From Arthrobacter sp. OV608 (lineage in GTDB: Bacteria > Actinomycetota > Actinomycetes > Actinomycetales > Micrococcaceae), in the NCBI GenBank assembly GCA_900110595.1, contig FOEZ01000011.1, positions 92,519 to 156,518 of the forward strand: DNA of 64,000 nt, in the 5' to 3' direction. Both the position numbers and the translations under genes were made by a program. Position 1 is the first letter of the stretch; each line of letters opens with the position of its first letter. The notes below the pieces were generated by a model, which was not told the DNA's origin, did no database searches, and saw only the letters and a list, made by a program, of their open reading frames with translations. Shown in pieces: positions 1-40,882 of the stretch.

Positions 1-420
1 CCGTCTCCAACAGCGCGGTGACCAGAAAGCGGTCGCGCGCATTCGCGGCCGCGCAGACCACCACTGCTGTCTCTTCGTCCATGAGCAATGCCGGCTCTGT
101 CGTCTCGGCACGAAACTTGAGCGTCCGTTCCTGCGTTGTGCGGAACTGGTCCCGCTCCCCGGCATCAAATTCGGGAGGGACATAGCGGAGGTATTTGGGC
201 TGTGACAGGAGTGCTGGAACCCGGGGCGCGACCCACCCGAGCCTCGCACCGAACTTGAGAAACTCGCTGGTCGTGGTCACGATCGCGTTAGCCGTGCCCT
301 TTGACCTCAAGCGCGCGGTGCTTTTCCCGCCGGAATGCCGAACGGGCTCTGTGATCAACCAGCGGAGAAAAGCGTGCAGCTCTGTGAACTCTGGATCGTG
401 CCAGTCCACTCCGGACTGCT
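1..420 (-). pseudogene. Tyrosine recombinase (phage-type integrase), fragment
   Basis: The reverse strand is open without a stop from about 420 to the left edge. It reads as a core-binding region followed by the start of a tyrosine-recombinase catalytic domain. Words such as FLKFGARLGW, PPEFDAGERDQF and ARDRFLVTALLETG (just before the first catalytic Arg, which lies off the window) fit site-specific integrases. The 5' end is missing: the frame meets the dehydrogenase fragment at about 420 with no start codon or ribosome site. The other end continues outside the window, so catalytic residues cannot be checked. The abrupt junction suggests a recombination breakpoint. The family call rests on motif recognition only. 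Confidence 0.65.
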
Positions 421-1351
421 GAACGGCAACACCATCCTGCTCAAGCACGCACCACAGTGCCCCGAGTCCGCACTGGCGATGGAACAGATCTTCCGGGACG
501 CCGGCGCGCCTGAAGGCGCCTACGTCAACATCTTCGCCACAACCGAGCAGGTCGCAGGAATCATCGCCGACCCCCGCGTGCAGGGCGTGTCCCTCACCGG
601 TTCCGAGCGTGCAGGCTCCGCGGTTGCCGAAATTGCCGGCCGCAACCTCAAGAAGGTTGTCCTGGAGCTGGGGGGCTCGGACCCGTTCCTGGTCCTGGAC
701 TCCGCAGACGTTGACCAGGCCGCCACGCACGCGCTGTTCGGCCGCTTCGGCAACACCGGCCAGGCCTGCAATGCCGCCAAGCGCATAATCGTCGCCGACG
801 CTGTCTACGACGAATTCATCGAGAAGTTCGTTAGTGCCGTCACGTCGGTGAAGGTGGGCGACCCCACGGAGCCGGATACTTTCATGGGTCCGTTGTCCTC
901 GTCCGCTGCGCGCGACGGCCTCGCCGCGCAGGTGGATGACGCCGTTGCCAAGGGCGCCAACGTGCTCACCGGCGGGGCCCCGCTGGAGCAGCCCGGCGCC
1001 TGGTACCAGCCCACAGTTCTCGCTGGCGTCACTGAGGACATGCGGGCCTTTTCCGAGGAACTATTTGGCCCGGTTGCTGTTGTGTACCGCGCCTCGTCCG
1101 AGGATGACGCGGTGGAACTGGCCAGCAACTCCGTGTACGGTCTCGGCGCCGTCATCCAGTCCACAGATGCAGCTAAAGCCCAGGCGATCGCAGCGCGGCT
1201 GGATACAGGCATGGTGTACATCAACGAAGCCCCCGGCACCGCGCCCGAGCTGCCCTTCGGCGGCATCAAACGCTCCGGCGTCGGCCGCGAACTCGGCAAG
1301 TACGGCATGGACGAATTTGTCAACAGGAAGCTCATTCGTACAGGGAAATAA
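419..1351 (+). pseudogene. Succinate-semialdehyde dehydrogenase-type ALDH, 5'-truncated
   Basis: About 310 residues of an NAD(P)-dependent aldehyde dehydrogenase of the succinate-semialdehyde dehydrogenase type, oxidising an aldehyde to an acid. Recognisable homology begins at GNTILLKHAP, which in full-length enzymes (about 450-480 aa) lies roughly 110-150 residues from the start, so the first part of the Rossmann domain is lost. The catalytic Glu segment (LELGGSDPF), the active-site Cys segment (NTGQACNA) and the C-terminal PFGGIKRSG are present. Upstream sequence in this frame belongs to the integrase fragment on the other strand. There is no ribosome site near 419, so this is most likely a dead remnant. 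Confidence 0.8.
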
Positions 1352-2288: not shown

Positions 2289-2813
2289 CAAAGCAGATAT
2301 AAGTGTGGACATTGTCCACACCCCCTTTGGCAGTACAAACCGAGCTCAGACGACTCACGAGACGTCGAAGACGAGCCTCCGCAAGAAAATTTTCGGCCCA
2401 AAGTCGGAGACGTCATGTCGTGCCCGCCACTCCCGACCATGAACAGGTGTTGGCCACTCCCGACCAACCCGACAGAACCGGAACGAGGAAGCATCTAATC
2501 CCACCACAGCAGGCGGAAGGCCCACCAGCCAGGGACTTGAACCGCCACCCCACATAACTGAAGAGGCTCCGCGGCAGCCAGGCCACAGCCCGCGCACCTA
2601 GCGTCAGAGGGACGCCACCACAAGCCATGTCAACAAGTTAAAGCAAAATCCCCTCTGACGAGGGGATATGCTGTGCCCGAGGTGGGACTCGAACTACATT
2701 CCGGCCCCTGCAAACACAAGGAACCCGCGAAAACATGCGGAATCCAAGCCAGTCCGAAGGCTGTTCGGCCCAATACGAGACGAAAAGTGCGGACAATGTC
2801 CACACCTCCTTTC
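2289..2813. repeat. Long direct repeat, copy 1 (about 525 bp)
   Basis: Imperfect direct repeat of 40192-40716. Shared landmarks occur in the same order and spacing: a palindrome at the left end (2303-2321), a conserved block around 2466-2535 containing GGGACTTGAAC (a reversed tRNA T-arm-like word), a hairpin around CCCCTCTGACGAGGGG near 2651-2667, a block with GTGCCCGAGGTGGGACTCGAA near 2672-2692 (reverse complement of a tRNA 3' end), GAAAACATGCGGAATCC, and a second palindrome at 2787-2805. Palindrome spacing is about 485 bp in both copies. Only tRNA 3'-terminal words are present, not whole tRNAs, which is typical of attachment-site remnants. Whether this is an att duplication or a dispersed repeat is not settled. 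Confidence 0.75.
2303..2321. repeat. Palindrome GTGTGGACATTGTCCACAC
   Basis: A 19-bp palindrome (9-bp arms around a central T) at the left end of repeat copy 1. Related sites lie at 2787-2805 (one change), 40206-40224 (degraded) and 40692-40708 (17-bp core exact). It could be a recombinase or regulator site or the foot of an RNA hairpin; the sequence alone does not decide. Confidence 0.75.
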
Positions 2814-3106
2814 GGGGCGCTGGAGGACTACCGGGGCATTAGATGCCTGGAAATCTCGGCGGCTGGGTCCAGCAAGTCGATAGTGCCCGCGGCGACCCCG
2901 ACAACGAGGGTGGAGCCTTTATCCGTGGTGAAGCCGTGCCCGCCGGCGCCATGGTCGAAGCGCAACAGTGCCCACAGGAACCCATTCCCCGATGCACAGC
3001 AATACACGGGGAGTTCGCAATCGGGCCGCCACCACGCCTACTACAATTCCAAAGAACCACTTGGCTAATGCACCAGACTCGATGCAACTCGTTGCATGAT
3101 GGTCTA

Positions 3107-5353
3107 ATGCGAGATTTTTCCGTCCTGTCCGACGTTGAGTTCGAAGAGCTATGTGCCGACCTACTCCAGACCACTTCAGGAGTAGCTGTTCGGCGGTACG
3201 CGAAAGGAAAAGACAAGGGCAAGGATCTGATTTGGGAGGAACTACCCGGGCAAGGAATTGCGCAATTTAAGCACTACGTTAAGTCAAATTTTTCCCAACT
3301 GCTTGCCGCTGCCAAGGCTGAAGTGCCCAAGGTCAAAAAGAGCAATCCAGCGCGTTACCTGTTCATGACTTCACAATCAACGGTCGAGACACAGAACAAG
3401 CAGGTCTATGACCTGTTCAGTGAATGGATGGTGTCTATTGATGACGTTTGGAATCTTGAAAAGATTGATGACCTTCTCAACGCAAATCAAGACGTCGAAA
3501 CACGCCATCTCAAGTTGTGGCTTCACAGCGGGCTTCAACTATTTTGGGCCACCAACAGTGCGCTGCACAACCGATCGCGTGCCCTTGCTAATCGCGTTAG
3601 TGAAGATCTCCCGCGCTTTGTCAAAACACGCGCTTTTGATACCGCAAACAAGACTTTAGATAAAGAAAACGTCTGTCTGATAGCAGGTGCACCTGGTGTA
3701 GGAAAGACGATGCTTTCTCACGCCTTGATCGCCCGTTTGATGGCGGAAGGATTCCTGCCAATCGAGATTTCTGGTGATGTAGAGGAGGGCTGGGCGGCTC
3801 TCGATTTATCAACTAAGCAGGTGTTCTTTTATGACGACTTTCTTGGCGAGTTGGCGCTGAGCGAGCGCCTGTCAAAGAAGGAGGATAGGCGTCTTGTTAA
3901 CTTTATTCAAGAGATCTCAAAGAGCGCGCGTCATAAGCTTATTTTAACTACCCGCGAGTATATACTTAAGGATGCGGAGCATACTTATCCGCTACTTCAG
4001 AAGATAGAGAAATCCCGCCGTCACGTCTTGGATATGCCTAATTACGATCGAATTGATCGGGGCCGAATCCTCTACAACCACCTCTACCACTCCTCCCTAC
4101 CGCAGGAATATAGGGAACAGTTTTCCCTAGGCGCATGGCAGCGGGTCGTCGATCATGATGGATACAGTCCACGTCTCATTGAGTATGCGACTAGTCAGTT
4201 GGCTCTCGGGTTCGACGGACGATACCTAGAAGCTTTCGTCAGCACACTGGATAGTCCTGAGTTGCTATGGAGCAATGCCTTCGAAAACCATTTGGAGGAG
4301 TTCGACCGTGTCGTTCTACAGGTCATGTGCACTCACGGGCGCATTACATATTCTGAATTGGAGGAATCGCTTCGGCCATATGATTCCTCTGTCGGCCCGA
4401 TCACCGAGCGACGCATCAATCGATCTCTGAAGACCTTGGACGGGACTTTTCTCCGAACTTCGAAAATCCTCGATCAGATCTACGTTTCATTCCATAGCCC
4501 GGCCGTTCGCGAGTTCCTACTAGAAGTCCTGCGAACTGATCGCCTGGCCCTAAGAACCGTCATCGACCGAGCTGTTTCAACAAGCCAGGTTATTCGTTTG
4601 GCCCAGGCCGGTTCTGGGCACTTGTCCTACAATAGACTAAACCGCAAGCTTGAACCTTCGAAACCTCAGCCGATTCCTCTTCATCTCGTGCGAGACAACG
4701 TTTCAAAAGCGATCCAACGACTCCTACCCTTGGATGACTTGATTAGTTCTACCGAAAAAGAGAAGGTCGATCGGGAACGTGACCTTTCCGAACTCGCCAC
4801 CCTGCATGCTGAATTGTCGCTCGCCGAATCCTGGTGGGCTTCACAACTAACCGCGGTGGCGGGAATCTGGAACGAAAGTATCGGAACACCAACCGCCATC
4901 AAGAACATTCTTGAGTTTGCAACCGGTCGCCCTGGCTTCGAGGAACTTAGGCCCAAACTTGAGGAGGCCGCACGTGAAGCTCTCATGGCCGCACAGATCA
5001 ATGATGACGAGGAGTGGGACATCGCCTTTGCTGTCTTTACGGATTTACTAGGCAGCGAGATTCCTGGCTCGCTTATAGATGAATTCGAGGTATACCTCTA
5101 CGATGCAATCGCGACTCAGGGCATGAATCTAACCAACATCGATGAATTAATGTCAATGGCATCAAATCTTGGTTTGTCGGCGGCCGTGGAGGATCTGGAG
5201 GAGCACGCGAGGACTATCTATGAGTATGAACAGATCATGGAAGAGGACCGCGAAGGATGGTCGAGCAAGACTATCCAAAACGACGGAACTGACGCCGCGT
5301 TGCGGTCTTTGTTCGATCGGTTCCGACCTGCGCCTTCAGAATTCGACGCATGA
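3107..5353 (+). CDS. Mrr-like restriction endonuclease fused to nSTAND3-type NTPase
   Basis: Probable antiphage effector-sensor protein of 748 aa. The N-terminal ~110 residues look like an Mrr/restriction-endonuclease fold: FSVLSDVEFEELCADLL, then the D...QxK core (KGKDLIW about residue 38 and AQFKHY about residue 52). A P-loop NTPase follows, with Walker A GAPGVGKT near residue 191, Walker B-like VFFYDDF and LILTTREYIL, typical of STAND NTPases of the nSTAND3 class. The C-terminal half is helical and probably senses the trigger. ATG 3107 is chosen because the nuclease domain begins there; an upstream ORF reaches 2843 but its extra residues look non-coding, and no good ribosome site is visible. 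The gene is visibly less GC-rich than its neighbours, suggesting transfer. It is convergent with the next operon. Confidence 0.8.
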   Translation: MRDFSVLSDVEFEELCADLLQTTSGVAVRRYAKGKDKGKDLIWEELPGQGIAQFKHYVKSNFSQLLAAAKAEVPKVKKSNPARYLFMTSQSTVETQNKQVYDLFSEWMVSIDDVWNLEKIDDLLNANQDVETRHLKLWLHSGLQLFWATNSALHNRSRALANRVSEDLPRFVKTRAFDTANKTLDKENVCLIAGAPGVGKTMLSHALIARLMAEGFLPIEISGDVEEGWAALDLSTKQVFFYDDFLGELALSERLSKKEDRRLVNFIQEISKSARHKLILTTREYILKDAEHTYPLLQKIEKSRRHVLDMPNYDRIDRGRILYNHLYHSSLPQEYREQFSLGAWQRVVDHDGYSPRLIEYATSQLALGFDGRYLEAFVSTLDSPELLWSNAFENHLEEFDRVVLQVMCTHGRITYSELEESLRPYDSSVGPITERRINRSLKTLDGTFLRTSKILDQIYVSFHSPAVREFLLEVLRTDRLALRTVIDRAVSTSQVIRLAQAGSGHLSYNRLNRKLEPSKPQPIPLHLVRDNVSKAIQRLLPLDDLISSTEKEKVDRERDLSELATLHAELSLAESWWASQLTAVAGIWNESIGTPTAIKNILEFATGRPGFEELRPKLEEAAREALMAAQINDDEEWDIAFAVFTDLLGSEIPGSLIDEFEVYLYDAIATQGMNLTNIDELMSMASNLGLSAAVEDLEEHARTIYEYEQIMEEDREGWSSKTIQNDGTDAALRSLFDRFRPAPSEFDA

Positions 5354-5636: not shown

Positions 5637-7418
5637 TTACGACGATTCCGTGGATGGTTGTTCTTGCTGCCCACCGAACAACCACTTATGCACGTCAAAA
5701 TTGGGGTCGTGATCCCCGGCCAGAAGTCGCTGCTCCCAAAGTAGTACCGCTTCATCACCCGGGCATTCCTCCACGGCGTACGCAGCCAACCTGGTTGCCG
5801 CGTGGTGGTCCCCGGCCGCTTCCATCTGATCGGCCGCTTCAATTTGAATCAAGGTGTCAATGGCTGCAGGCAACGGAGCCTCCTTTCCCTGGACGCGAGC
5901 AGCGCGGCGCGAATCCGCCAACGCTAACCACTGCTCTACTGTCCATTCAGGTGGCCGGTAATCCGAAAGAAATGCAACGGTTTGGGCGATAGCTGAGGGT
6001 CTCTCCAGTACTGATTCGTACCTCTTTAGAAACTCCCCCACCTCTGACCCATGATCCGCAGGATTCGTGACCTGGTGCCAGAGTACGTAGATGGCGATGA
6101 GGGCTGTCCTTTCCTCTCCGTCTGGAAGACCGGGAACCAGCTCCTCGATTTTGGTCACCACCTTGGTGAGATTGAATCCTTCACTCCTGCCAGCCCGCCA
6201 GTCGATGATGGCTTCCGCCACGGCAGAAAATCTCTTGAGGGCTGACTTGGCGTCGAGCTGCTCGTGCTGCCAGATCCAATATTGAGGGGCAAGTTCCATC
6301 TGGATGACTCCTGGCAGGGAATCCGTATAGTCCCAAGGTGCAGATTCTTCCGCTGGCGTCGCTTGGACAAACTGCCTGACCACGTGACGCAGCAGACGCC
6401 AGAGACCAGACAAAGTAAGGACCTGCCGAAGCCTTGGTTCGAAAGCCGTTTCTGCTCCATCGGTGTGTACCCAAGCTTCCTGACTAAGATTCTCCAGAAC
6501 GTGGCTTCTCCTAGAACGGATGTCGTAGGCGATGCTCAGCATCCGCTCGATATCAGCCGAACGCGGAGGCCTCACTGCCCCAGTCGCGTCCCCGCGGTAG
6601 AAGTCAGGCGAGATCCTAGCGAGCGTTGAGGAGATGAAACGGCGCTTTAGACCTGCACGGTCAGCCATCAGCACCGCTTCGCGGATGTTTGCCTTCTCCT
6701 CCTCGGCCAAGTCCATTAGTGCTGCGTCCATGATCTTGCGTTTGGAAGGGTCGTACCGGTCCCAAGTAGTAGGCGCCGCCAGAGAGTCCACCGAAAGAGA
6801 TTCGAGGGCTGCAACGAGGTCCGTATATGCCCCTGTTGGATCATCTAAGGCCCTCCGAGTTGCATCCACTGAGTTGCGGATAGCCCTCATGACGCGAGCA
6901 AAATCAGCGCGTGGGAGCTGCAACAGGGCCTGCATGAAGCTTTTGAGCTCATCCCAGCTCTCCGGGCCGATAACTTGTCCGGAAGTAAAGAGCTGTGGAA
7001 ATAAGCTGGAAGCTCCGCTACTGTGACCGCGAGGACCAGCAATCAGAATTAGCCGGCGTGCCTGATCGTAGTCCCGTTCAAACGTCCGGTTGAGGGAAAA
7101 AGTCATCACGTAGGCAACGTCGTCAAGGAGCTCGTCACCTCCCGTGGCGACCAAGATCGAGTCTCTCCCGTGCCAATCTTGGGCCTCAAGCCTGTCCACT
7201 GCTTCCATGGTGACAGTCGCCATGTCCGTGATTCCTGTGGAAAAGTGGACCGTCCCCACCGGCAAGTGAATTGCGGGAGCAAACGGGAACGACACGTTGG
7301 TGTAGAAAGTCCTTCTATGAGTATTCTCTTTCAGCGCAACTTCTGAGCGAAAGTAGCGTCCAGAGGCGATCTGCAGCATCAGCTGCCCTCGAAACGTCTC
7401 CGATTTTTTCTTAGCCAT
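5637..7418 (-). CDS. Unrecognised 593-aa protein, partner of the nuclease gene
   Basis: Second gene of a two-gene operon. It begins MAKKKSETFRGQ at 7418, and its ATG overlaps the stop of the upstream nuclease gene by 8 nt (ATGGCTAA), so the two are translationally coupled. No domain is recognised. The N-terminal ~120 residues are beta-rich with many aromatic residues, followed by long helical segments (for example DLAEEEKANIREAVLMADRAG). The last ~100 residues are Ala/Glu-rich, resembling a helical repeat or TPR-like tail (AADQMEAAGDHHAATRLAAYAVEECP). No signal peptide or membrane segment is seen. Tight coupling to a PD-(D/E)XK protein next to another defence-type gene suggests a defence role, but that is inference. 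Confidence 0.7.
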   Translation of the reverse strand: MAKKKSETFRGQLMLQIASGRYFRSEVALKENTHRRTFYTNVSFPFAPAIHLPVGTVHFSTGITDMATVTMEAVDRLEAQDWHGRDSILVATGGDELLDDVAYVMTFSLNRTFERDYDQARRLILIAGPRGHSSGASSLFPQLFTSGQVIGPESWDELKSFMQALLQLPRADFARVMRAIRNSVDATRRALDDPTGAYTDLVAALESLSVDSLAAPTTWDRYDPSKRKIMDAALMDLAEEEKANIREAVLMADRAGLKRRFISSTLARISPDFYRGDATGAVRPPRSADIERMLSIAYDIRSRRSHVLENLSQEAWVHTDGAETAFEPRLRQVLTLSGLWRLLRHVVRQFVQATPAEESAPWDYTDSLPGVIQMELAPQYWIWQHEQLDAKSALKRFSAVAEAIIDWRAGRSEGFNLTKVVTKIEELVPGLPDGEERTALIAIYVLWHQVTNPADHGSEVGEFLKRYESVLERPSAIAQTVAFLSDYRPPEWTVEQWLALADSRRAARVQGKEAPLPAAIDTLIQIEAADQMEAAGDHHAATRLAAYAVEECPGDEAVLLWEQRLLAGDHDPNFDVHKWLFGGQQEQPSTESS

Positions 7419-10400
7419 GGGCGCCACTCGACAACCAGGGACGTAAATATTCCTCAAGGGTCAGCACCGGAAATTTCTCGTTCACGAAGCCAGCCGGAGC
7501 CACTTTACGGGTCACGAAAACGGTGGAGAGGCAATAAGCAGATCCGTCCATCGACGGCTCCAAGCCAAGTTTGACAGCGATTTGGTCTATGAACGGCTTC
7601 AGTTCGGCTTCCTTCCGGGCCAGTTGAGTCGAGTAAGAGGGCTTGGTTTTGCCTCTTGAGTTTGTGGAATCCCTGAAGAAGGTTCGCAGCTGCCGTGCGG
7701 TTTCGGCCACGGCGTGTACGGAGGCAGGGTCCTTTGCTTCGATGAGCCAGATGGTATTTTCGCCGGGCTTCGCGGCGACGAGGTCGATCTCAGTCGTGAG
7801 CGTTGGGACTCCGAGCCGTCTGTGGTCTCCGGCCTTCACACGCGCAATGGTTCTGAAGCCCAGATTCTTCAATTCATTCTCAAGCGTCTTTTCGAAGTGT
7901 TTGTTACGTAGGTCCCGGATACGTTCGAGGGCTTTTCCTACCTCCGGCGGGATTCCGTCTGTCCATGGCAGTACGCCTTGGGACAGGTGGTTGTTGTAGA
8001 CGCTGAGGCTTGTCATCAAATATTGCGGGGCTATTAGGAGGCTGCCAGCGTCGGATCGGACGATGGGCTGAACCAAGAGTCGGTGGCGCCTGGTTCTGGT
8101 CTGCCAAGGTTCCCAGTCAGATTTTTGGAACTCTCCCGTGGTGCTGACTAAGAGCTTTAGCGCTCGGCTGTACCGATCCTGTCGGGCCCCGGTGGTGTCG
8201 TTGGCCTCTGCGCAGATCCAGTCGATTACCTCAGTCTCGTAACCCGTTCCGACACTGCTGCCTTGTGCAAAAGAATCCCATCGGACAAGGGCGGTTAGAA
8301 CGTGGAAGATGTCCTCTACGCTTGCGCCTTCTGTTTCGAGCATGGCCTGATTGAGTTCGACCATGGAGACCGGCGATTCTGTTACCGATGATTTCCCTGG
8401 ATTGAGACTGACGCCGGCTGAAGCTTTGTCCATGGCCTGGACGTTAAGCACCCAGGAGCCCGGTGCTGGCTGTTCGTCCTGTTCGAATTTGATCTCGTAC
8501 GCGTGGGTGATTTCGATGGTGAAAGGGGCGACCTTATGATGTAGGCGCTCACTGATGGTCGTCATGGTCCGGTATGCATTGGCTGCTGCAAGAAGTCCGC
8601 TCCATCTCCGGCTCGTTATCGGAAGGGGCGGGCCGTCAGCGCCGGTGCTGCGCAGCGATGCCTCGACGATGATTTCGTTGCACTGTCGGAGCATTAGCGT
8701 GTCGCCCATGGCTTCTGCCATTCGTTCTTGAGGATCCCATGTGACGGGTAGGTGGGCGGCTACCCTGCTGAGGTCCTCTCGCTGGCGGGTGCCGTCGTAC
8801 ATGACTCGGTTGAGCTGCTCTAGACCGGTCTCAAGTATCTCTTGTTTATCGTGGGCGCGAATGCGTTCATTGAGCGCGGCCAGGGCAAGAGGTGCGAGGT
8901 GTTGCTGCACGAGCCTGTTGGCGTCATGGCCCCGGTATGTCCCAGGTTCGACGTCACTGGCAGCTAATTTTCGAGCTGATGCTGCGATCGTAGCTGATTC
9001 GTCTGCGGGGTCTAGGCTCCATGCCGAAGCTAGATGGTGGAGAGTGGTCCTCGATCGAGCAGTTTCCAGGATCAAGAACGGCTTGTTCGAAAGCCAGTCC
9101 TCCCTGAGGTCTGTAATTACGTCACTTTGAAGGTTAAGTGACCCAAGCAAACCTACAAAGGCATCTGCTGTTACTCGGTTCGCGGCCCGCGGATCACCGT
9201 CAGCCAATTCGACAAATCTTTCAACATCTATTGCCCATTGGAAATTCCGTTCACCCGTTGTGCTTTCTTCATCAAGGGGGCTGAACTCTATGATTGATTG
9301 ATCAGGTTCAACACGCGAGTCAGATTTGATTGCTTGAAGTACCAGTCGATAGCCAGTCGCTTCGGAGTGAGAATGCGCTTGTTCCCATCTCTCTCGGATA
9401 GCGTCAAAAGCAAATACTAGGCCCCCGCAGAAGCCGAAAAGGAATTCATAGTGCTCCGGTGGGCTCCAGGACGGAATTGACCTAATGATTGCTACTGGTG
9501 GATTCGTTAGCGCTAGCGACCAGCCCACCACGGGAGGTGCCTGATGGAGGCCGGTCAGGGGATCGTAGCGTCCATACTGCTGCTGGATTGCTATCGTTGC
9601 CACACCGCGGGCAGTTAATTCGGCGACCTGTGTATCCCTTAAAGGTGGAAGGCCGGTAGCATGCAGCGCTTCCTCAAGTGACGAGAGCTCATATGCGCGC
9701 TCCCATTCCGCGTCCCCGGCATGGGCTTCGAAGTAAAAGAAGGAGGGGGCAATGCCCCCGGCGAAGAAAGACTTACCGTTAGCCCTCCATGGCTCCCAGT
9801 AGTTAATGGCTTCCCACCCGAAATTCTCTGGAAAGCTTGGATCGCTCAGGTCGCGTGCAAAGAGATACAGGTCATCTTCGTCTTTTGCAGTTTCAGCGAT
9901 CCACGTCAGGTCTTCTAACGCCAGTGTCGCCGAGCCTTTTTTCTGGGGTACGGCGAGATGGCCGGCGGCAGCAAAGATAACAAGCGGAACTATTTCAGTG
10001 TCTGCCGTGAGCGTGAGCTCTCCCCCACCGGCGAGGGCGACGACAACGGGCTCGTCACTGCCTGAAACTTTCTTCGCAAGCCTGTCGCTCGCAAATGATC
10101 GGCTCTGTGGCAAGAAATCTTCTACTTGCACCATGGAAACAGCAATTGCCGTATTCGTATTCACTGGCAGGATCCATTGGATCTCCTGTCCAGTCAACGC
10201 AAAGTTACCTGCCCGTTTCGGCGCACCTTCGTACAATGACTTGGAGAACCTCCAGAGCGCCTTCCGCACTGCATTTAGACTTGAGATGCGCAAAGCACGG
10301 CGAGCTTCCGGGTTCTGCTTGACAGTACCAACTAATTCGGACACTGCAGCCCCCACAATCTCCGGAACGTAAGCGGGAGGCAGCCACCGGTCAGGTAGTC

Positions 10401-11160
10401 CCGGCGTTCTGTACCTCAAGTACCAACCAAACGGGCTGTTCGGACTTGAAGGATCAAAGTTCGCGTTATCCGATGATCTGGTCATCCACTCGAGAGCAGC
10501 AGCATCTCCTTCCTTGAGCTCAAACGTCGTCAAGGGGTCTCGAGAAATTAGGGCTTTAGCTGCTTCCACCTCCTCCACAGGAAGAACAATCTCGTCCCGC
10601 AACTCTAGGTTCGGAGCAGGTTTGAATGAAGACGAGAGTCCGTTGGTCGCAGTGTGCGCCCAGTTGTAGGCCACTCGGATGACATTCTCGAGACCAAACC
10701 CATGCTTCCTCATGAGAAATGGGTCAAGGGCCTCTGCTAAACGCAGCGCACGAGACAGATCAGCTAAAGGGCGCTCCGTGGCCCCAGGTACAACATGCCG
10801 CAGATCATCGCCGACCCGAACGAATAGTGATTCAGACGGGTCCTTAGGAATGAAATCCTCCTGAACACCATCAATTCCTGAAGCCTCTGCTGCCTGATCG
10901 ACGACTTCTTGAACTGATGTAAGCGGAGTAGACAGAGTGGTATGCGCGATAGAGCGGGCACGGAGGGCGGCCGCGAGGGCGCTACCAACGGAAACAGAGC
11001 GGTGGCGCGCCGACGGCGACGACGCTGCTGCGAATAAAAGACACCACAATTCGTCTGCGTTGAAACTACTCATTGAGCGGGCCAGAGGATCTAGCCGATC
11101 CAAGCCGCTCCGTCGCTGTTTTCTTGGCTTTCCAGCTTTATTTCGCCCCATAGAGAACAT
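7411..11160 (-). CDS. Large protein with C-terminal PD-(D/E)XK nuclease domain
   Basis: A 1249-aa protein (1246 aa if translation starts at the fourth residue, Met at 11151). The C-terminal ~170 residues look like a restriction-endonuclease fold: FEKTLENELKNLGF, then EIDLVAAKPGENTIWLIEAK with Asp1126, Glu1141 and Lys1143 as a D...ExK active site. The preceding ~1070 residues are not recognised; they contain no Walker motif or helicase motif that I can see and have mixed alpha/beta character. It is the first gene of an operon, and its stop lies inside the start of the 593-aa gene. It may be a nuclease effector with a large sensing or DNA-binding part. Length and arrangement do not match a defence system I can name. 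Confidence 0.7.
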   Translation of the reverse strand: MFSMGRNKAGKPRKQRRSGLDRLDPLARSMSSFNADELWCLLFAAASSPSARHRSVSVGSALAAALRARSIAHTTLSTPLTSVQEVVDQAAEASGIDGVQEDFIPKDPSESLFVRVGDDLRHVVPGATERPLADLSRALRLAEALDPFLMRKHGFGLENVIRVAYNWAHTATNGLSSSFKPAPNLELRDEIVLPVEEVEAAKALISRDPLTTFELKEGDAAALEWMTRSSDNANFDPSSPNSPFGWYLRYRTPGLPDRWLPPAYVPEIVGAAVSELVGTVKQNPEARRALRISSLNAVRKALWRFSKSLYEGAPKRAGNFALTGQEIQWILPVNTNTAIAVSMVQVEDFLPQSRSFASDRLAKKVSGSDEPVVVALAGGGELTLTADTEIVPLVIFAAAGHLAVPQKKGSATLALEDLTWIAETAKDEDDLYLFARDLSDPSFPENFGWEAINYWEPWRANGKSFFAGGIAPSFFYFEAHAGDAEWERAYELSSLEEALHATGLPPLRDTQVAELTARGVATIAIQQQYGRYDPLTGLHQAPPVVGWSLALTNPPVAIIRSIPSWSPPEHYEFLFGFCGGLVFAFDAIRERWEQAHSHSEATGYRLVLQAIKSDSRVEPDQSIIEFSPLDEESTTGERNFQWAIDVERFVELADGDPRAANRVTADAFVGLLGSLNLQSDVITDLREDWLSNKPFLILETARSRTTLHHLASAWSLDPADESATIAASARKLAASDVEPGTYRGHDANRLVQQHLAPLALAALNERIRAHDKQEILETGLEQLNRVMYDGTRQREDLSRVAAHLPVTWDPQERMAEAMGDTLMLRQCNEIIVEASLRSTGADGPPLPITSRRWSGLLAAANAYRTMTTISERLHHKVAPFTIEITHAYEIKFEQDEQPAPGSWVLNVQAMDKASAGVSLNPGKSSVTESPVSMVELNQAMLETEGASVEDIFHVLTALVRWDSFAQGSSVGTGYETEVIDWICAEANDTTGARQDRYSRALKLLVSTTGEFQKSDWEPWQTRTRRHRLLVQPIVRSDAGSLLIAPQYLMTSLSVYNNHLSQGVLPWTDGIPPEVGKALERIRDLRNKHFEKTLENELKNLGFRTIARVKAGDHRRLGVPTLTTEIDLVAAKPGENTIWLIEAKDPASVHAVAETARQLRTFFRDSTNSRGKTKPSYSTQLARKEAELKPFIDQIAVKLGLEPSMDGSAYCLSTVFVTRKVAPAGFVNEKFPVLTLEEYLRPWLSSGAHG

Positions 11161-14111: not shown

Positions 14112-14707
14112 CTGTCGAAACCCTGACTCGGAGGCCGCGCCTTTTGCTGGCCGGCCCCGTGAAGTGTGAAATTTATAGCGGTTCACCGTAGGACAAGGCG
14201 CCGTTCTCGCTATGGCCAAAACGAACCGGTGCGCTAACCCAGGACAAACCGTCAGGTCCCCGTTTGAGGGAATTACGTCAGACTGTCTCAGTGGCATCCC
14301 ATCACGTCCTCCCGCGATGGACACCTAGCCTGAGAATAGACCTTTGACTAACGAGTGACCAGATCAAAATGCCCCCCACATTATGTTCTGAAGGAATAGG
14401 GGGCGATCACCTAAAAGCCCGACCTTCCCAGGGCTGCGTTGCCAGTTAGGAGCGGAGTTTCGCGGCAACCGACGCCCCGGGGGTTCTTGATCGCCTGCCA
14501 GCACGTGCGGCCGGTGCAGGGGTTCGTCCAGGCGCTTATCCGCGAGACTGCCCCCAGGGGCCGGTGCCCGAACTCAAAGCCGCCAGCCCAAAGGCTGTGG
14601 ACCTCGCTGCGCACGTCAAGGTGCGTCGGTCGCCAATCCGCTGGCAGTCACCCACCATGCGCTGCCCCAACGCCATTCTCCTATTTTGAGTAGGCAGGCG
14701 GAACGTC
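14112..14707. other. Long gap, nothing recognised
   Basis: About 600 bp without a supportable gene. Short ORFs occur on both strands (for example reverse 14411-14614), but none has a ribosome site or recognisable sequence. No repeat or RNA signal was identified. Confidence 0.35.
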
Positions 14708-15931
14708 TTACCTTGGTTCCCTAAGAAGGAGTATTGATGCCGGATGCGGCCCGTTTGCAAGCCAATCGTCGCTGATCTCGGTGGCTTTGGCTGCATGAAG
14801 AACGAGCTGTGCGGCCAGGGTTGAGCCAGTGATTTTTGAGTAGGCCAGCGCAATTTCCCCAACAGCCTCGGTGTGCTCGAGAACCGGGAGCAGATGCGCG
14901 GAGGTGACATTGCTGAGCTCCCCAACACGTTGGCCGTCGAGACGGATTTCGACAAAGGGACGCTGGGTCCCATTCTTCAACGTGTAGGTTTCTTTGTGCA
15001 GGCTGACCAGCAGTATTCCCATACCATCGGCAGGCACATACTTGCCGAGTACGTCGAAGTGGTTTTCTTCCTTCAGGACCTGAATTGCTGATCCCCAAGT
15101 TATAAGGGTAGTCACGCCTGCAGGCGCAGCATTGAGGGGTGCGATTAACGCTGGTTCAGGCAATGCAACGGTTACGCGCGCCCGAAGGCGGTCCCCTTCG
15201 TCGTAAGCCCAAACCCGGGCAGTGGCAGCAGCGACGTTTCCGCTGGCGATGATTCTCGTCAGCGGTCGTGTGTAGCGTTTTGCGTCCTCTCGGCTGAGGT
15301 AGCCGAGAACTCGGCCTTTCCATCGGACGCTGATGGCGTTGGGGTCAAGCGGGTTGTCCGGTTCAGCCACCAGTTCCACCAGTAGACCTTCAGTTTCACC
15401 TTCGTTCCGACCAGCTGCCAGCGCACCATTTGCACGCAGGGCCGCCCTGATCGCCTTGCCGTACGCGTGTTCGCCTACAACTTCGACATTCGGCCATTCC
15501 GACCGGCCAAGCGAAACATGGTAAAGATTCTTGGTGGCCGGAACTGCTTGATCTACCCGCGGGGTCGGGTCCGCAGCGACTGGCACATCAGTAACCGGAG
15601 CCCCGCTAACCAAGACTTCCATTTGCTCGCCGTCGGCAGGCGTATTGGGGTTCTCAAGAAAACCTGCCGACCAGTTGATGTCCTCCCACGCCTGCCGACG
15701 GCTACGCCGCTTCCGCATCAGGAATGCCAGCCCGACAATTCCTGCGGCCAACAGAGTTCCTGCCGGGGATGAGAAGGTCACAACCAGCAGCAGCAATCCG
15801 AACAAAGTCCGCTGGGCAATTCCCCCAGCCTTTTCGATTTCAGGGACGCCGCGGCCACCAGTAGTCAACTTGGCCGGGTCAGCACCAACGTGCGCCAGGA
15901 CGTTGGCCGCCTGTCCCACTGTAAGGTGCAT
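14708..15931 (-). CDS. HIRAN-domain membrane protein (C-terminal part of a split gene)
   Basis: 407 aa from the first in-frame ATG. A hydrophobic segment near residues 44-72 (FGLLLLVVTF, LLAAGIVGLAFLM) precedes a basic stretch. A HIRAN-like domain follows around residues 145-235 (VVGEHAYGKAIRAAL, EPDNPLDPNAISVRW, GRVLGYLSREDAKRY); HIRAN domains bind DNA ends or occur as stand-alone DNA-interaction modules. The C-terminal ~150 residues are unassigned. The frame is open upstream of this ATG to a TAG at 15986, which is the stop of the DUF4236 gene in the same frame. This was therefore probably one protein, and the start given here may not be used. Confidence 0.65.
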   Translation of the reverse strand: MHLTVGQAANVLAHVGADPAKLTTGGRGVPEIEKAGGIAQRTLFGLLLLVVTFSSPAGTLLAAGIVGLAFLMRKRRSRRQAWEDINWSAGFLENPNTPADGEQMEVLVSGAPVTDVPVAADPTPRVDQAVPATKNLYHVSLGRSEWPNVEVVGEHAYGKAIRAALRANGALAAGRNEGETEGLLVELVAEPDNPLDPNAISVRWKGRVLGYLSREDAKRYTRPLTRIIASGNVAAATARVWAYDEGDRLRARVTVALPEPALIAPLNAAPAGVTTLITWGSAIQVLKEENHFDVLGKYVPADGMGILLVSLHKETYTLKNGTQRPFVEIRLDGQRVGELSNVTSAHLLPVLEHTEAVGEIALAYSKITGSTLAAQLVLHAAKATEISDDWLANGPHPASILLLREPR

Positions 15932-16795: not shown

Positions 16796-19700
16796 ATGGG
16801 GATCTCTTCGCTGCTGCACGGAAAACGCCGTAGGACGGCATCCGTTTCGGCACTGGCCAGCATCTCATTGGCGGCAGCCGCTCTGGCTTTCCAGTACGAC
16901 GGACTTCCTGCCGCAGACCTGGATCTCAATGATGGCGGCGTCTGGGTCACCAAACAGTCCGATCTGCTGGTGGGTCACCTGAATTTCCCCTCACGGGTAC
17001 TGGATGCCGGGCTTCGTACCAAGGCTCCTCAGTACGATGTCCTCCAGCAAGGCGACACCGTACTCGTTCACGACAGCGCCAATGCCACGCTGACCCAAAT
17101 TGACCCCGCGCGCGTGACGCTCCTAGGCAGTGGCTCCCTGCCCGCGGGCGCAGCCGTCTCCACGGGATCTGATACGGCGGCTATCCTGGCCGACGGTGAC
17201 CTATACGCAGTTCCCGTTGGAAGTATCGATGGTCTTCGCTTAGACGGCGCGGAACCACTGGCCAAACTCGGTGCCGGCGCGGTGGCGACTATTGGCCTCG
17301 ACGGCGTCATCCACGCCTTCTCGCCTACCCTCGGCGAAGTGCGCGACTATGCTCCGAAGGACAAAGACTACGCCCAAAAATCGGCTCGCAAGCTAGCTGA
17401 ACTTCCCAAGGACGCGAAGCTGAGCATCGCTGCCGTCGGTGCCGACGCGGTGATGTTCGATTCCAACGCTGGAGACCTCTACTTGCCCGGTGGACAGAAA
17501 ATAGCCATAGCCGATGGAAAAGGTGGGTCACTTCAAGAAAACGGGCAGGCAAACGACCGCGTACTGGTGAGCACTCTGAGTGCCTTGGTGGCACAGCCTC
17601 TGGCTGGAGGTTCCGCTACGGTTACCCGCGCTCCTAAGACGAGCACGAACTCCGCGCCAGCGGCCCCCGTCTGGCTGAACGGCTGCGCATACGCTGCCTG
17701 GTCCGGCACCTCAACCTATCTGCGGGACTGTGGGGCCGGGAAGGTCGAATCCGGTGCCGTGCCAAACATGCCGGCGAATGCCCAGCTGGTCTTCCGCGTG
17801 AACCGCGATGTAGTCGTTCTCAATGACATCCAAGGCGGCGGCGTCTGGCTGGTCACGCAGAAAATGCTCTTGGTGCAGAACTGGAACGACGTAGTTCCCC
17901 CGCCGGACGTCCAGGATGACCAGGAGGAGAAAAGCCCGGACCAGCAGGTAACCCTGCCGAAACGCACCGAACAGAACCACCCACCAGTCGCCGTCGATCA
18001 GCAATTCGGCGTCCGGGCAGGGCGCACGTCCCTCCTGCGGGTTACGGAGGAGTGCTCGGACCCGGACGGAGACGTACTTGCAGCGGCGCTGGCAGGATCG
18101 GCCCCGCCGGGTGTCGAGGTCCAGCCGGCTCTGGGCGGTGCGGCCCTCCAGGTCTCCGTGCCCGCGAGTGCGTCCGGTTCCCTGACCTTCAGGTATCGGG
18201 TGGACGACGGGCGAGGTGGAACAGCCGAGGCCAATCTCACCTTGGCGGTCCGTCCGGCGGGGCAGAACTCTCCGCCGGAGCTGAAGCGGCCACAATCCAT
18301 GAAAGTGGAGTCCGGCGCTACCCTCCAGCAGGACGCCCTGCAAGGATGGCGTGATCCCGACGGCGACGAGATGTACCTCAAATCTGCCACCACCGACTCG
18401 GGCGACCGCGTCACCTTCCGAAACAACGGCATTATCGACTTCGCCGCGGTCTCCGGCCAAACGGGAGTCAAAGAGGTCAAACTCATCGTCTCGGATGGCA
18501 CTGCTGACGCCGAGGGCCTGCTCCGCGTCGAGGTGCTGCCCAAGGGGTCTCTGCGACCGATCGCCAACGCCGACCGGATGACCGCCGTCGCGTCTACGCC
18601 TCTGACGATGTCTCCCCTGCTCAATGACATCAGCACTTCGGGCGCCGCTCTGCGGCTCGCAAAGTATGACCAGGTCCCCGGGGCAAGCATCACCGCCGAC
18701 TTCACCGCCGGCACGATCACCTTCCAGATGGCCACTCCGGGTACTTACTACATGCAGTACCTGGTGACTGACGGACCCAACTCCGCCGTCGGGCTGATCA
18801 GGATAGACGTACTGCCAGGAAGCGGCACAAGCCGTCCGGTCGCAGTACGCGACGTCGCCCTGGTCCCCGTCGGCAGATCAGCCCTGGTGGACGTCCTGGC
18901 CAACGACAGCGATGCCGCAGGCGGAATCCTCATCGTCCAATCCGTCGAGGTACCCGCCGGAACCGGGGTCACGGCTGAAGTACTGGAAAACCGCGTGATT
19001 CGGGTGACCGATATGGTGGGTCTTAGCCATCCGGTCACCTTCCGCTACACCGTTTCCAACGGTGCCGAAGCCGCGACAGGTGAGGTCCTTGTCCTTCCCG
19101 TCCCGCTCCCGGCCACGCTCCGCCCCCCGGTCACCGTCGATGACACGGCGACGGTAAGAACCGGCGACGTGGTGACAGTCGACGTCCTGCACAACGACTA
19201 CCACCCCGACGGCGACACCCTCACCCTCCGTCCGGACCTCGTGGCCCCGGAACCCACGCCAGCTGAGGGAACAGCTTTCATCAGCGGCGACAAGTTGCGT
19301 TTCCGGGCCGGCCAGAATGCAGGAACGGTGCACGCAACCTACGAGGTAGCGGACTCGCAGGGCAACCGCACCGCAGGCTACGTGACCATCCAGGTGGTCG
19401 CGGAAGATGACACTCATAACTCGGCTCCCCGTCCCCAGCCCATCACCGCGCGCGTCATCGCCGGCAACACCGTCCGCATCCCGGTTCCGCTGGACGGCAT
19501 CGATCCCGACGGCGACTCCGTGGATCTGCTGGGCCAGCGGGATGCCCCGAAGATGGGTCGCGTAACTGTTGGCGACACCTGGCTCAACTACGAGGCGTAT
19601 CCCGACTCGGCTGGTCGCGACTCCTTCACTTACGTCGTGCGTGACCGCCGGGGAGCCGAAGCCGTCGGCACCGTCGTCGTCGGCATTGCCCCGCCCAGCT

Positions 19701-22700
19701 TCCAAAACCAGGCGCCCTACGCAGCAACAGACACGGTCACGGCGAAGCCGGGCCGCACCCTGTCCGTCCCTGTCCTCGCCAACGACAGCGACCCTGACGG
19801 CGACCCGATCCTGCTGGTGACGGAAGGGCTGACCGTGCCCGACGGCCTATCCGCCAAGGTCACCGATGGCCGCGTCCTAGTCACCGGGCCCGGACGCTCC
19901 GGTCAATACACCCTCCGGTACACGGTCGCCGATATTTATGGCTCGAGCTCGGTCGGCTCCCTCGTGCTCGACATCAAAGAGGACGCCCCGGCCCAGCGAC
20001 CCCTCGCGCGGGACGACTATGTGACGAAGATCGAGATGTACGGCAAAACATCGGTTGATGTACCCGTTCTGGCCAACGACGAAGATCCCGACGGCGTCGC
20101 CTCCGACCTGCGGGTCTCCACGGATGACCCCAATACCTCCGTCGGACCCGGCGGAACCGTCAACGTCAGATTCACCGAGGCCTCCCAGGTCATTCTGTAC
20201 ACGGTGGCGAACGCGGACGGACTCACCGCATCCGCGTTCGTCCATGTGCCGGGACTGAAGGACCTGCGGCCTGAACTGTCCGTGACCAAGCCCCTCGAGG
20301 TGAAGAGCGGAGAAACCCTCACCATCAGTCTTGCCGACGTGGTGAAGGTACGTGACGGACGGATTGCCCGCATTGCGACCGCTGACAGCGTCTCGACGTC
20401 CCATTCCAATGGCGCTCCCTTGCTGAAGGACGAACACACGTTCAGCTACACCTCGGCCGCGGACTACTACGGCCCGGATACCCTCACGGTCCAGGTGACC
20501 GACGGCACCGGCCCCGATGACGCGAGCGGGCTCTCCTCGACCATCTCCATACCGATCCAGGTCATTCCTGCACAGAATGTTTCGCCGACCCTGTTGGGCA
20601 CCACCATCGAGGTGGCTCCCGGTGAAGCAGAAATTCCGGTCAACTTGGCACGGCTTTCCCGGGATCCGAACCCCGGCGATCTTGACCGACTGGCATACAG
20701 CCTGCAAGGCAGCCCCTCGGGCGGATTCGCCGCACGGGTCGAGGGACAAAAGCTGTTGGTAAAAGCTGACGCTTCCGCCGCTCGGGGTGCGAGCGAAAAA
20801 GTGGTCGTGCAGGTCAGCGACAGCACTTCAGCTCCCACTACCGCGACGTTCACGCTGACCACTGTTGTTTCCTCCCGGCCTTCCGCGGCGGCGAACGACG
20901 ACGTCGTGGCCGACGCCAAGGCAGGCCAAAAATCCGTTGTGGACGTGCTGGCCAACGACGTGAACCCTTTCCCTGAGACACCGCTGAAGGTCCTCGGCGC
21001 CCACGTAGATTCCGGCTCCGGTGTTGCCGAGCTGGAAGGCGACAAGGTTGCCATCACTCCAAGCGCGGACTTCGTTGGGGTCATGATTGTCAGCTACCAG
21101 GTGCAGGACGCCACCAACGCCCCCGAACGTCAGGTGGAAGGTCACGTGACGCTGACAGTGCGAGGAAAACCCGGCGTCCCCGGAGTGCCCTCGGTGAGCT
21201 CCATCCAGGACAGCACCGTCGTGCTCTCGTGGACTCCCCCGTCGAACAACGGGTCGTCGATCACCGGCTACGCGGTCTCGTCAGCGAAGGGCTATTCCAA
21301 GGCGTGCCCGTCCACCACCTGCACACTGGACGGACTCACCAACGACGTCGAGTACACCTTCACCGTCACCGCAACCAACGACGTCGGAACCTCCGACCCG
21401 TCGCCGGCGTCGGCACCGGCACGTCCCGACGCCCGGCCCGAGGCGCCCCTAGCACCCTCTCTGGTCTTCGGCGACAAGAAGGTCTCCGTCGCGTGGACCA
21501 CACCGACGAGCCACGGTTCGCCAGTGACAAGCTACACGCTCGAAATCTCGCCCGCGCCGGCCTATGGTTCGGTCCAGAAAACCGGTGTCGCCGGCAACTC
21601 AATGGAGTGGGAAGGCCTGGAGAACGGCGTCGCCTACCAGGTGAGGGTCCAGGCCAATAACCGCGCCCCGGAACCGTCTGCGTGGAGCCCCTACTCGGCC
21701 TCGGTGATTCCCGCCGGCGTCCCGGACGCGCCGGCGCCGCCGACCACGTCGCCCTCGACGGCGGTCGGCAGCCAGGCACAGATCCTCGTAACGTGGGCGC
21801 CGCCGAACGCGAACGGTGACCCGGTTGCCGACTACACGCTCAGTGTTAGGCGTGGCGGCGCCGTCGTGAACAGCCTGACCCTCGCTGGAACCAGCCAGAA
21901 CGTCACCGTGGATACCAGCGAATCCGACTACTCGTTCTCTGTGACGGCGCGAAACAAGGCCGGAGCGTCAGCGCCAAGCGCGGACTCGGCACCACGCCGG
22001 GCCGCGAACGCACCGTCGGCGCCTGTGAGTGTCACGGCCACCGAAGGCGACCGCAACTCGCAAGTTAGCTTCACGCCGGGTCCGTTGAACGGCAACCGGC
22101 CGAATGAGATCAGCTGGCGGTGGAAGGCGACGCCGGGCGGGTTGAGCGGTTCCTTTGGCAGCGCGACGACCGGGACGATCACGGGACTGGCCAACGGTAC
22201 GTCCTACACCATCCAGGTCTGGGGCGAATCGACGGTCCAGGGCGTCGCTCCCGGGCCTGCAACGTCGTCGAACCCAGTGAACCCGTATGGTTCGCCGCTC
22301 GTCCGCAACCTCGTGGGCGTAGGCGGGGACGGCACAGTGTCCTTCAATTGGTCAGTGGACGGAAATGGCAGGAACGTGACCGGCGTGCAGGTTAACACCT
22401 CGGCCGGCAGCACGTCGGGAGGAGCGGGACTGACAAGCTACACAGCATCAGGACTTGGCCCGAGCCAGACAGTGAACGCCTCCGTCACCGTGACCACCGA
22501 CGCCGCCGATGCTGCACGCAAGACCGCATCGGGCTCGGCCTCGGCGACGAGCAACCCGGTCCGCCTGAGCATTTCACGAGGCAATCCCGACTCCCGAAAG
22601 GCCGGGACTTATTTCCTGCAGTTGAATTACGCCAACTTGCCGGCAGGGAACTACACGCTTCAGTGCTACGCCAACGAAACACTGGGGGGCACGACCCCCT

Positions 22701-40191: not shown

Positions 40192-40716
40192 AAAAGCAGA
40201 CATAAGTGTGGACACTGTACACGCGCCATTTGAGAGGACAAAAGTACACAGGCCGCCCTCTCGGGTGGTTCTTTAGGCCGCGCCCGCCGCCGTGCGTAGA
40301 GCAGGTGCGGAACAGTCATGTCGTTCCCAATCCACCGCGACATGAATAGGTGTAGGCCAACCCGGGCTTACCTGACAGAACCGGAACGAGGAAGCGCTAG
40401 AAGCCAGTCGCAGCAGGCGGAAGGCCCACCAGCCAGGGACTTGAACCCGCCACCCACACATCTGACCAGGCCACGCGGCGGCCCGGCCACAGCCTGCACA
40501 CCAACCCGTCAGAGCGACGCGAATCAAGCTTTGTACACACGTTAAAGCAAATTCACCTCTGACGAGGCAAAACGTCGTGCCCGAGGTGGGACTCGAACTG
40601 CATTCGGCGCCTTGCTAACGCTGGGAACTCCCGAAAACATGCGGAATCCGAAGCAGTGCGAGGGCTATACGACCCGATTTGATGCCCTATATGTGGACAT
40701 TGTCCACACACCATTT
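40192..40716. repeat. Long direct repeat, copy 2 (about 525 bp)
   Basis: Imperfect direct copy of 2289-2813 in the same orientation. It shares AAAGCAGACATAAGTGTGG at the left end, the block with CAGAACCGGAACGAGGAAGC and GGGACTTGAAC, CCTCTGACGAGG, GTGCCCGAGGTGGGACTCGAA, GAAAACATGCGGAATCC, and palindromes at both ends (40206-40224, 40692-40708). The following 170 bp up to the toxin gene contain nothing recognised. Confidence 0.75.
40692..40708. repeat. Palindrome TGTGGACATTGTCCACA
   Basis: 17-bp palindrome at the right end of repeat copy 2, identical to the core of the site at 2304-2320. The left-end site of this copy (40206-40224) has lost two symmetrical positions. Confidence 0.75.
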
Positions 40717-40882
40717 CCCAACCACGAGACGCCATAAAGAGCCTGATCTACCTTCGCGTCCTGGTCAGCTTCCGGGACCTTATGGTCCCTGCCGCCTCCA
40801 TTCAGGCGTCCCTTGAACGGGCCGGCCCCGCCTCACAGGATGACGCGTCCGGAAATGGCCCAACCGCAACCCGAACCGTTAG

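What the first reader, a model, noticed from the sequence alone, without database searches (positions are those of the whole stretch)
5637..11160. Unrecognised two-gene nuclease operon, candidate new defence system
A 1249-aa protein with a C-terminal D1126...E1141-x-K1143 nuclease site is translationally coupled (8-nt overlap) to a 593-aa protein with no recognised domain. The pair is convergent with an Mrr-nSTAND3 gene and sits in a repeat-bracketed accessory segment. I cannot match size, order or motifs to a named system.
Basis: partly seen in the sequence, partly recalled or inferred. Interest (0 to 1): 0.8.

Follow-up and report, generated by a model that had tools for sequence, protein, structure and literature searches.

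The report
Upx-like nuclease joined to HEPN-like protein
Two neighbouring bacterial genes that look like one new anti-virus system are more likely two separate defence genes, a distant relative of the known nuclease Upx and an unnamed, widespread probable RNA-cutting protein, that were joined end to end inside a mobile gene island.

Summary
The two ORFs, the 8-nt overlap and the D1126/E1141/K1143 nuclease site are real. The "two-gene system" reading is not supported. Protein A (7411-11160) is a remote relative of the anti-phage protein Upx over its C-terminal ~580 residues (hhalign 99.7%, E 3e-25; PDB 9wuf), but far below the Upx equivalog cut-off. Protein B (5637-7418) belongs to an unnamed family in bacteria and archaea: N-terminal beta strands, a helical core with an invariant R-S-x3-H (HEPN-like ribonuclease motif; profile support weak) and C-terminal TPR-like repeats. 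In 206 genomes of the genus, A occurs in 4, B in 4, both only in the window's genome. Two A-only relatives (88% identical) lose DNA similarity to the window at A's last codons; a B-only relative (72%) starts at B's ATG. A's own stop codon is missing, and A now ends inside B's start. B's relatives lie beside or near unrelated defence genes (type I R-M, CBASS, Rmr, Pgl, Gabija). Two A-only and two B-only relatives lie near the same tRNA-Leu(CAA) 3'-end repeats. Best reading: two independent defence modules fused into one probable transcription unit. Anti-phage and RNase activity are untested.

The parts
7411..11160 (-). Protein A, 1249 aa, Upx-related large nuclease
   Evidence: Upx hit of the C-terminal region in PADLOC 5.8e-7 and NCBIfam 7.8e-6; profile hit to 9wuf 1.6e-15
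7432..9171 (-). C-terminal region of A (residues ~664-1243) homologous to Upx
   Evidence: hhalign A2 vs A6, prob 99.7, E 3.2e-25, 549 columns
7732..7785 (-). PD-(D/E)XK motif D1126...E1141-A-K1143
   Evidence: alignment
5637..7418 (-). Protein B, 593 aa (alternative start 7379, 580 aa); unnamed family
6360..6965 (-). Helical core of B (residues 139-340 in MLQ numbering), proposed HEPN-like domain
   Evidence: AlphaFold2 model pLDDT 84.9; hhalign against ApeA HEPN weak
6501..6518 (-). Invariant R288-S289-x3-H293 of B (R301/H306 in 593-aa numbering)
   Evidence: invariant in 9 of 9 rows of A1 and 28 of 28 of A5
5706..6173 (-). C-terminal TPR-like helical repeats of B (residues ~403-558)
7419..7428 (-). 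Ten nucleotides between the A-side and B-side homology: the inferred joining point, where A's own stop codon stands in A-only relatives
   Evidence: A-only relatives match to 7429 and 7431, B-only relative matches from 7418
2412..2813 (+). Left direct repeat with tRNA-Leu(CAA) 3' end (2673-2694)
40315..40717 (+). Right direct repeat with tRNA-Leu(CAA) 3' end (40577-40598)
2843..5353 (+). Convergent neighbour, Mrr-like/nSTAND3 protein, PADLOC PDC-S73

Best explanation
Two independent anti-phage modules sit end to end in a segment bracketed by tRNA-Leu(CAA) repeats. A is a stand-alone Upx-related protein whose C-terminal PD-(D/E)XK domain probably cuts phage or cellular DNA when its large N-terminal part senses infection (nuclease site shown, target and trigger inferred). 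B is probably a stand-alone abortive-infection effector: a HEPN-like domain cuts RNA when the TPR-like repeats or the N-terminal domain bind a phage or host cue (motif shown, RNase activity and trigger inferred). In this genome a recombination event (inferred from the ends of homology) left A without its own stop codon and placed B's start there, so the two are probably co-transcribed and translationally coupled (overlap shown, coupling inferred). B relatives lie beside several unrelated defence genes, so B looks like a plug-in effector rather than a subunit of A.
For: A is Upx-related: profile A2 hits 9wuf at 1.6e-15 over 709-1171; the 9wuf segment scores 951 bits to PADLOC Upx; hhalign A2 vs Upx relatives 99.7%, E 3.2e-25. 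Separate occurrence: 4 of 206 genus genomes have A, 4 of 206 have B, only the window's genome has both. No A relative lies in any other B locus held (profile search, E<=1e-3). Junction: DNA match to A-only L018 (88.7%) and L096 (89.5%) stops at 7429 and 7431; to B-only L097 (73%) at 7418; both A-only genes have a TAG at that point. B motif R-S-x3-H invariant in 9 of 9 and 28 of 28 rows; hhalign score to ApeA HEPN 27.2, 0 of 200 column shuffles reach it. B neighbours: 17 of 27 loci scanned had a PADLOC hit at E<=1e-5 among the 1-2 genes I chose; in L097 B lies upstream of type I R-M genes. Shared repeats: tRNA-Leu(CAA) 3'-end copies flank A in L018 and L096 and lie near B in L028 and L029.
Against: A scores 23.3 bits against a Upx equivalog cut-off of 1900; A relatives L016, L018 and L021 have no Upx hit in NCBIfam and L016, L021 none in PADLOC (L019 1.2e-4); A's first ~650 residues did not align to Upx. 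HEPN assignment of B is weak: no HEPN model among the Pfam hits of 28 members, hhalign probability 19% with 13 ApeA sequences and 14-35% with four, default alignments stop before the motif or pair it three residues out of register, the usual Ex3[KR] is not kept, and the fold searches listed no HEPN structure. L097 and most other B loci lack the tRNA repeat (one search lists L030-L034 and L036 without it, L097). No random-locus control was run for the neighbourhoods, and neighbours were hand-picked. Joining by recombination does not exclude that the two now cooperate.
Confidence: 0.6

Rival explanations
1. A and B are a true two-component system: A cuts DNA and B senses or restrains it; the pair is just rare.
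For: Same strand, 8-nt overlap; both families are found near defence genes.
Against: Both together in 1 of 206 genus genomes only, the window's own; closest relatives of each lack the other; the junction coincides with the ends of homology; NCBIfam names Upx as a single anti-phage protein.
Confidence: 0.12
2. B is not a nuclease but a TPR adaptor or regulator that controls whichever defence operon it sits in.
For: TPR-like C-terminus; adjacency to several unrelated defence genes, upstream as well as downstream; no HEPN model among its Pfam hits.
Against: Invariant R-S-x3-H and an invariant upstream glutamate across bacteria and archaea look catalytic; the only DNA-binding-type Pfam hits are marginal (WH2_Lhr 0.28, HTH_31 0.23, one member each); in some loci B has no close co-directional neighbour.
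Confidence: 0.22
3. A and/or B are housekeeping genes (repair, RNA processing) that only happen to lie in an island.
For: No activity data.
Against: Sparse presence: 4 of 206 genus genomes each; tRNA-repeat setting; defence neighbours; Upx relationship.
Confidence: 0.05

Closest known systems
Upx (PADLOC PDLC02221, NCBIfam NF042954, PDB 9wuf 'Restriction endonuclease')
   Same: Length (1249 vs 1240-1272), C-terminal PD-(D/E)XK in the same place, collinear homology over ~580 residues; A relatives L018, L096 and L016 lack B
   Different: 15% identity in the aligned part, N-terminal half not aligned, far below the equivalog cut-off
ApeA-type HEPN proteins (PF18739) and Tha
   Same: Single protein with a helical domain holding R-[N/S]-x3-H; ApeA and other HEPN families are reported in R-M operons (PMC3710099, passages read); Tha is a HEPN abortive RNase (PMC11087260, passages read)
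   Different: No Pfam HEPN hit for B; B has TPR-like repeats after the HEPN-like core, ApeA ends with HEPN; S instead of N after R
HEPN families fused to TPR (LA2681, C6orf70 in PMC3710099 Table 1)
   Same: HEPN plus TPR, in operons with TPR or R-M genes (passage)
   Different: Seen only in the table passage; no such model appeared among the Pfam hits of B
PD-(D/E)XK phage-defence nucleases in general
   Same: D...E-x-K catalytic motif
   Different: Embedded in a 1249-aa protein with an unassigned N-terminal half

Membership tests
Upx | NCBIfam equivalog cut-off 1900 bits | tested here: not met
   23.3 bits; A-family relatives L016, L018, L021 no hit at E 1e-3
Upx | Homology of the C-terminal half to Upx | tested here: met
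   hhalign 99.7%, E 3.2e-25, 549 columns; hmmsearch to 9wuf 1.6e-15
Upx | PD-(D/E)XK site near the C-terminus | tested here: met
   D1126/E1141/K1143; Upx D...E-C-K at the same alignment place
Upx | N-terminal ~650 residues homologous | tested here: inconclusive
   only the C-terminal alignment was reported
Upx | Anti-phage activity of the single protein | not testable with these tools
   none
HEPN superfamily | Rx4-6H motif (definition from PMC3710099) | tested here: met
   R288-x4-H293 in 28 of 28 A5 rows and 9 of 9 A1 rows; rows were not selected on this motif; some A5 rows are near-duplicates (L054/L055, L045/L047)
HEPN superfamily | Polar residue right after R (mostly N, D or H) | tested here: met
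   S in all rows; polar but not one of the commonest choices
HEPN superfamily | Upstream conserved acidic residue, typically Ex3[KR] | tested here: inconclusive
   E193 invariant, K/R at +4 not kept; not a universal feature in the paper
HEPN superfamily | Profile match to a known HEPN family | tested here: inconclusive
   Pfam lists none in 28 members; hhalign to 13 ApeA sequences prob 19%, P 0.0012 against 0.14-0.25 for two unrelated alignments; 0 of 200 column shuffles as high
HEPN superfamily | HEPN four-helix fold | tested here: inconclusive
   good model but the fold search rows covered mostly the C-terminal repeats; domain not folded alone
HEPN superfamily | RNase activity | not testable with these tools
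   none
ApeA (PF18739) | HEPN_Apea model hit | tested here: not met
   not among the Pfam families listed for 28 B members (E<=10, filters on); the window's genome has no PF18739 hit
Conserved two-gene A-B system | A and B co-occur and are adjacent in relatives | tested here: not met
   both in 1 of 206 genus genomes; no A relative in any other B locus held

The most novel reading that the evidence does not exclude
B is a new HEPN-TPR family that acts as a portable guard: it inserts, sometimes with overlapping or near-touching genes, into operons of many unrelated defence systems (R-M, CBASS, Rmr, Upx-like and others) and kills or stalls the cell by RNA cleavage when the partner system is disabled or engaged.
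Probability: 0.2. Interest if true: 0.8.

Novelty: new variant of a known kind. Interest (0 to 1): 0.5.

Why it matters
It extends Upx-related proteins to a diverged actinobacterial branch, brings up a defence-linked protein family without a usable model in Pfam, PADLOC 2023, NCBIfam or PHROGs (as far as scanned), and shows at base level how an apparent two-gene operon can arise when two cassettes meet at a stop/start boundary. That is a warning for discovery work that reads overlap as functional pairing. If B is a portable guard, the question of why HEPN RNases are embedded in unrelated defence operons becomes testable with one protein and several partners.

Tried and rejected
Searches for A in phages and viral contigs found nothing; B in viral contigs gave one relative, L059 (none). 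AlphaFold2 of A's C-terminal 260 residues without an alignment was useless (pLDDT 36) and not used. Fold search of the B model: no PDB or viral match at E<=0.001; the second look listed helical-repeat matches to the C-terminus; no HEPN structure was listed. Sequence profile of B against the PDB: best hits designed TPR (0.1) and nuclear factor 1 (0.05 and up, residues ~190-258), judged chance. PHROGs: no hit for A, B, L059 or L018. One of 28 B members hit PADLOC OloB at 8e-4, judged chance. Neighbours of B within 8 kb were clustered: a recombinase/integrase group recurs in 9 loci's flanks; no defence gene recurs as a constant neighbour. I first thought B began at MLQ (7379); close relatives support the upstream start 7418. 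MLQ invariance in A5 is partly by selection, because the scan pattern contained MLQ. A first hhalign with only four ApeA sequences gave 14-35% and a motif three residues out of register. Papers: no paper on the 9wuf structure found; Upx searches; HEPN-TPR defence search; all in the held open-access library only. Of PMC12629846 I saw two passages on Upx hotspots, of PMC13092281 passages.

Full report
Observation. The two ORFs are present as described: A 7411-11160 (-), 1249 aa, and B 5637-7418 (-), 593 aa, or 606 aa from a TTG at 7457. They overlap by 8 nt. D1126, E1141 and K1143 are correct. The neighbour at 2843-5353 (+) is convergent and is an nSTAND3 protein with a sub-threshold Mrr_cat match, PADLOC PDC-S73. 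The segment is bracketed by direct repeats 2412-2813 and 40315-40717 (77% over 407 nt).

Protein A. Pfam gives nothing. PADLOC and NCBIfam give a weak hit of residues ~1007-1167 to Upx (5.8e-7 and 7.8e-6). A profile of six A-family sequences, the window's included, hits PDB 9wuf (1272 aa, 'Restriction endonuclease') at 1.6e-15 over 709-1171. The matched 477-residue part of 9wuf scores 951 bits to the PADLOC Upx model, so 9wuf is Upx. Against an alignment of five Upx relatives from plasmid records, which score 110 to 1483 bits to the NCBIfam Upx model, the A profile aligns with probability 99.7% and E 3.2e-25 over 549 columns, collinear to the C-terminus and with the nuclease motif in register. 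The N-terminal ~650 residues did not align. A misses the equivalog cut-off by far (23.3 against 1900 bits), and three A relatives have no NCBIfam Upx hit at all, so I call it Upx-related, not Upx.

Are A and B a pair? In 206 genomes of the window's genus, A is found in 4 (own, G541, G050, G014) and B in 4 (own, G503, G032, G028); only the window's genome has both. In the earlier draw of 99 relatives: A 3, B 4, both 1, again the own genome. In a draw of 396 genomes of the phylum: A 5, including the own genome and one marginal at 7e-4, B 1, the own genome. These draws overlap, and in the phylum draws only 2-3 candidates per genome were scored. A profile search of the loci held found no A relative in any B locus other than the window's, and L097 has none either; several loci are short contigs.

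The junction. Two A-only relatives, both 88% identical in protein, match the window's DNA from 11223 (L018) or 11697 (L096) down to 7429 and 7431 and stop there. In both, A ends with its own TAG at that place (L018 ends ...RPWLS, L096 ...RLWLL). The nearest B relative found (L097, G503, 72% identical) matches from 7418, the first base of B's ATG, down to 5673. So the window carries A without its stop codon, ten nucleotides of unassigned DNA (7419-7428) and then B; A runs on for SGAHG and stops inside ATG-GCT-AAG of B. The overlap is therefore best read as a by-product of joining. In L097, B again overlaps an upstream ORF, but another one (200 aa, 11 nt by mechanical ORF ends), and is followed by a type I methyltransferase and further on by a type I R subunit.

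B's neighbours. I scanned 1-2 chosen neighbours in 27 B loci (the window not counted) against PADLOC; 17 of 27 had a hit at E<=1e-5: type I R-M (L057), a CBASS SAVED effector 9 nt upstream of B (L042), a CBASS-effector-like protein (L040), RmrT/RmrA (L036), a PD-T4-6/Mads6-like kinase (L054), a type II REase (L051), methyltransferase/PglX-like proteins (L044, L048), GajA two genes away on the other strand (L013), PD-Lambda-4 (L015), Dsr1-like (L031), PDC families (L028, L033, L043, L047, L050) and a CARF hit about 3.5 kb away (L010); 10 of 27 had none (L029, L030, L032, L039, L041, L046, L049, L052, L053, L059). In 9 of the 27 the hit gene is co-directional and within 150 nt (with the same calls). 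The choice of neighbours was mine and no random-locus control was run, so this shows variety of neighbours, not measured enrichment. L012 lies between TrlF and CBASS genes by its record annotation. In some loci B has no close co-directional neighbour. Clustering of neighbours found no constant partner.

The island. The repeats carry a 22-nt stretch that is part of the 3' end of tRNA-Leu(CAA): an intact tRNA-Leu(caa) is called in L018 just upstream of A (8235-8317, A starts at 8621), in L028 about 8 kb from B, and on contig C42 of the window's genome. L018 has a second copy at 19587 and L096 has copies at 90 and 12646 around A (3 and 1 mismatches); L028 has copies at 4423 (1 mismatch) and 7378 before B, and L029 one at 14673 (1 mismatch) after B. 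The window's contig has five direct copies (568, 8260, 39079, 95191, 133095), which looks like a row of islands. So some A-only and B-only relatives use the same setting, which gives a simple route to the joined pair. Ten other loci checked have no copy: L019, L020, L021, L030, L031, L032, L033, L034, L036 and L097.

Mechanism and status. Shown: homology of A's C-terminal half to Upx, the nuclease motif, B's invariant motif, the ends of homology at the junction and the separate occurrence. Inferred: that A and B protect against phage, that A cuts DNA, that B cuts RNA, and that they are co-expressed here. Most likely they act as two layers, a DNA-directed nuclease and an abortive RNase. The boldest reading left open is that B is a portable guard for many systems; [quoted passage not shown] Tha, a 301-aa HEPN RNase with an abortive mode, is a functional precedent (PMC11087260, passages). 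That Upx protects against phage in Gao et al. 2020 is recalled, not read; the NCBIfam model name calls it an anti-phage protein.

Noticed in passing
window 2673-2694 and 40577-40598; G000 contig C38 568, 8260, 39079, 95191, 133095: Five direct copies of the tRNA-Leu(CAA) 3' end on one contig, spaced about 8 to 56 kb: looks like a tandem row of tRNA-anchored islands.
   Followed up: partly
window 335-1351: Aldehyde dehydrogenase ORF that matches only profile positions 149-460 of 461, so it lacks the N-terminal third, left of the island repeat.
   Followed up: no
window 16796-22831: A 2011-aa protein with Big_9, cadherin-like and fn3 repeats inside the same repeat-bracketed segment, followed by a run of large + strand ORFs.
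   Followed up: no
window 14708-15931: A 407-aa protein with a HIRAN domain (Pfam 1.6e-8) beside a DUF4236 gene.
   Followed up: no
L096 2199-7451 and L028 11293-16542: Related ~1750-aa proteins (27-29% identity), one convergent with A, the other downstream of B; the L028 copy hits PDC-M54A weakly.
   Followed up: partly
L097 8372-14221 and 14655-18080: B lies between an overlapping 200-aa ORF and type I R-M genes on a ~280-kb contig.
   Followed up: partly
L020 8196-12004; L017; L011 8022-9803; L056 8766-9475: Relatives of A (L020, L017) and B (L011, L056) that are split over two or more reading frames, perhaps decayed or sequencing errors; left as they are.
   Followed up: no
window 2843-5353: PDC-S73-type Mrr-nSTAND3 gene; its residues ~90-300 also match two PADLOC Argonaute-associated (Aga) models.
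   Followed up: no
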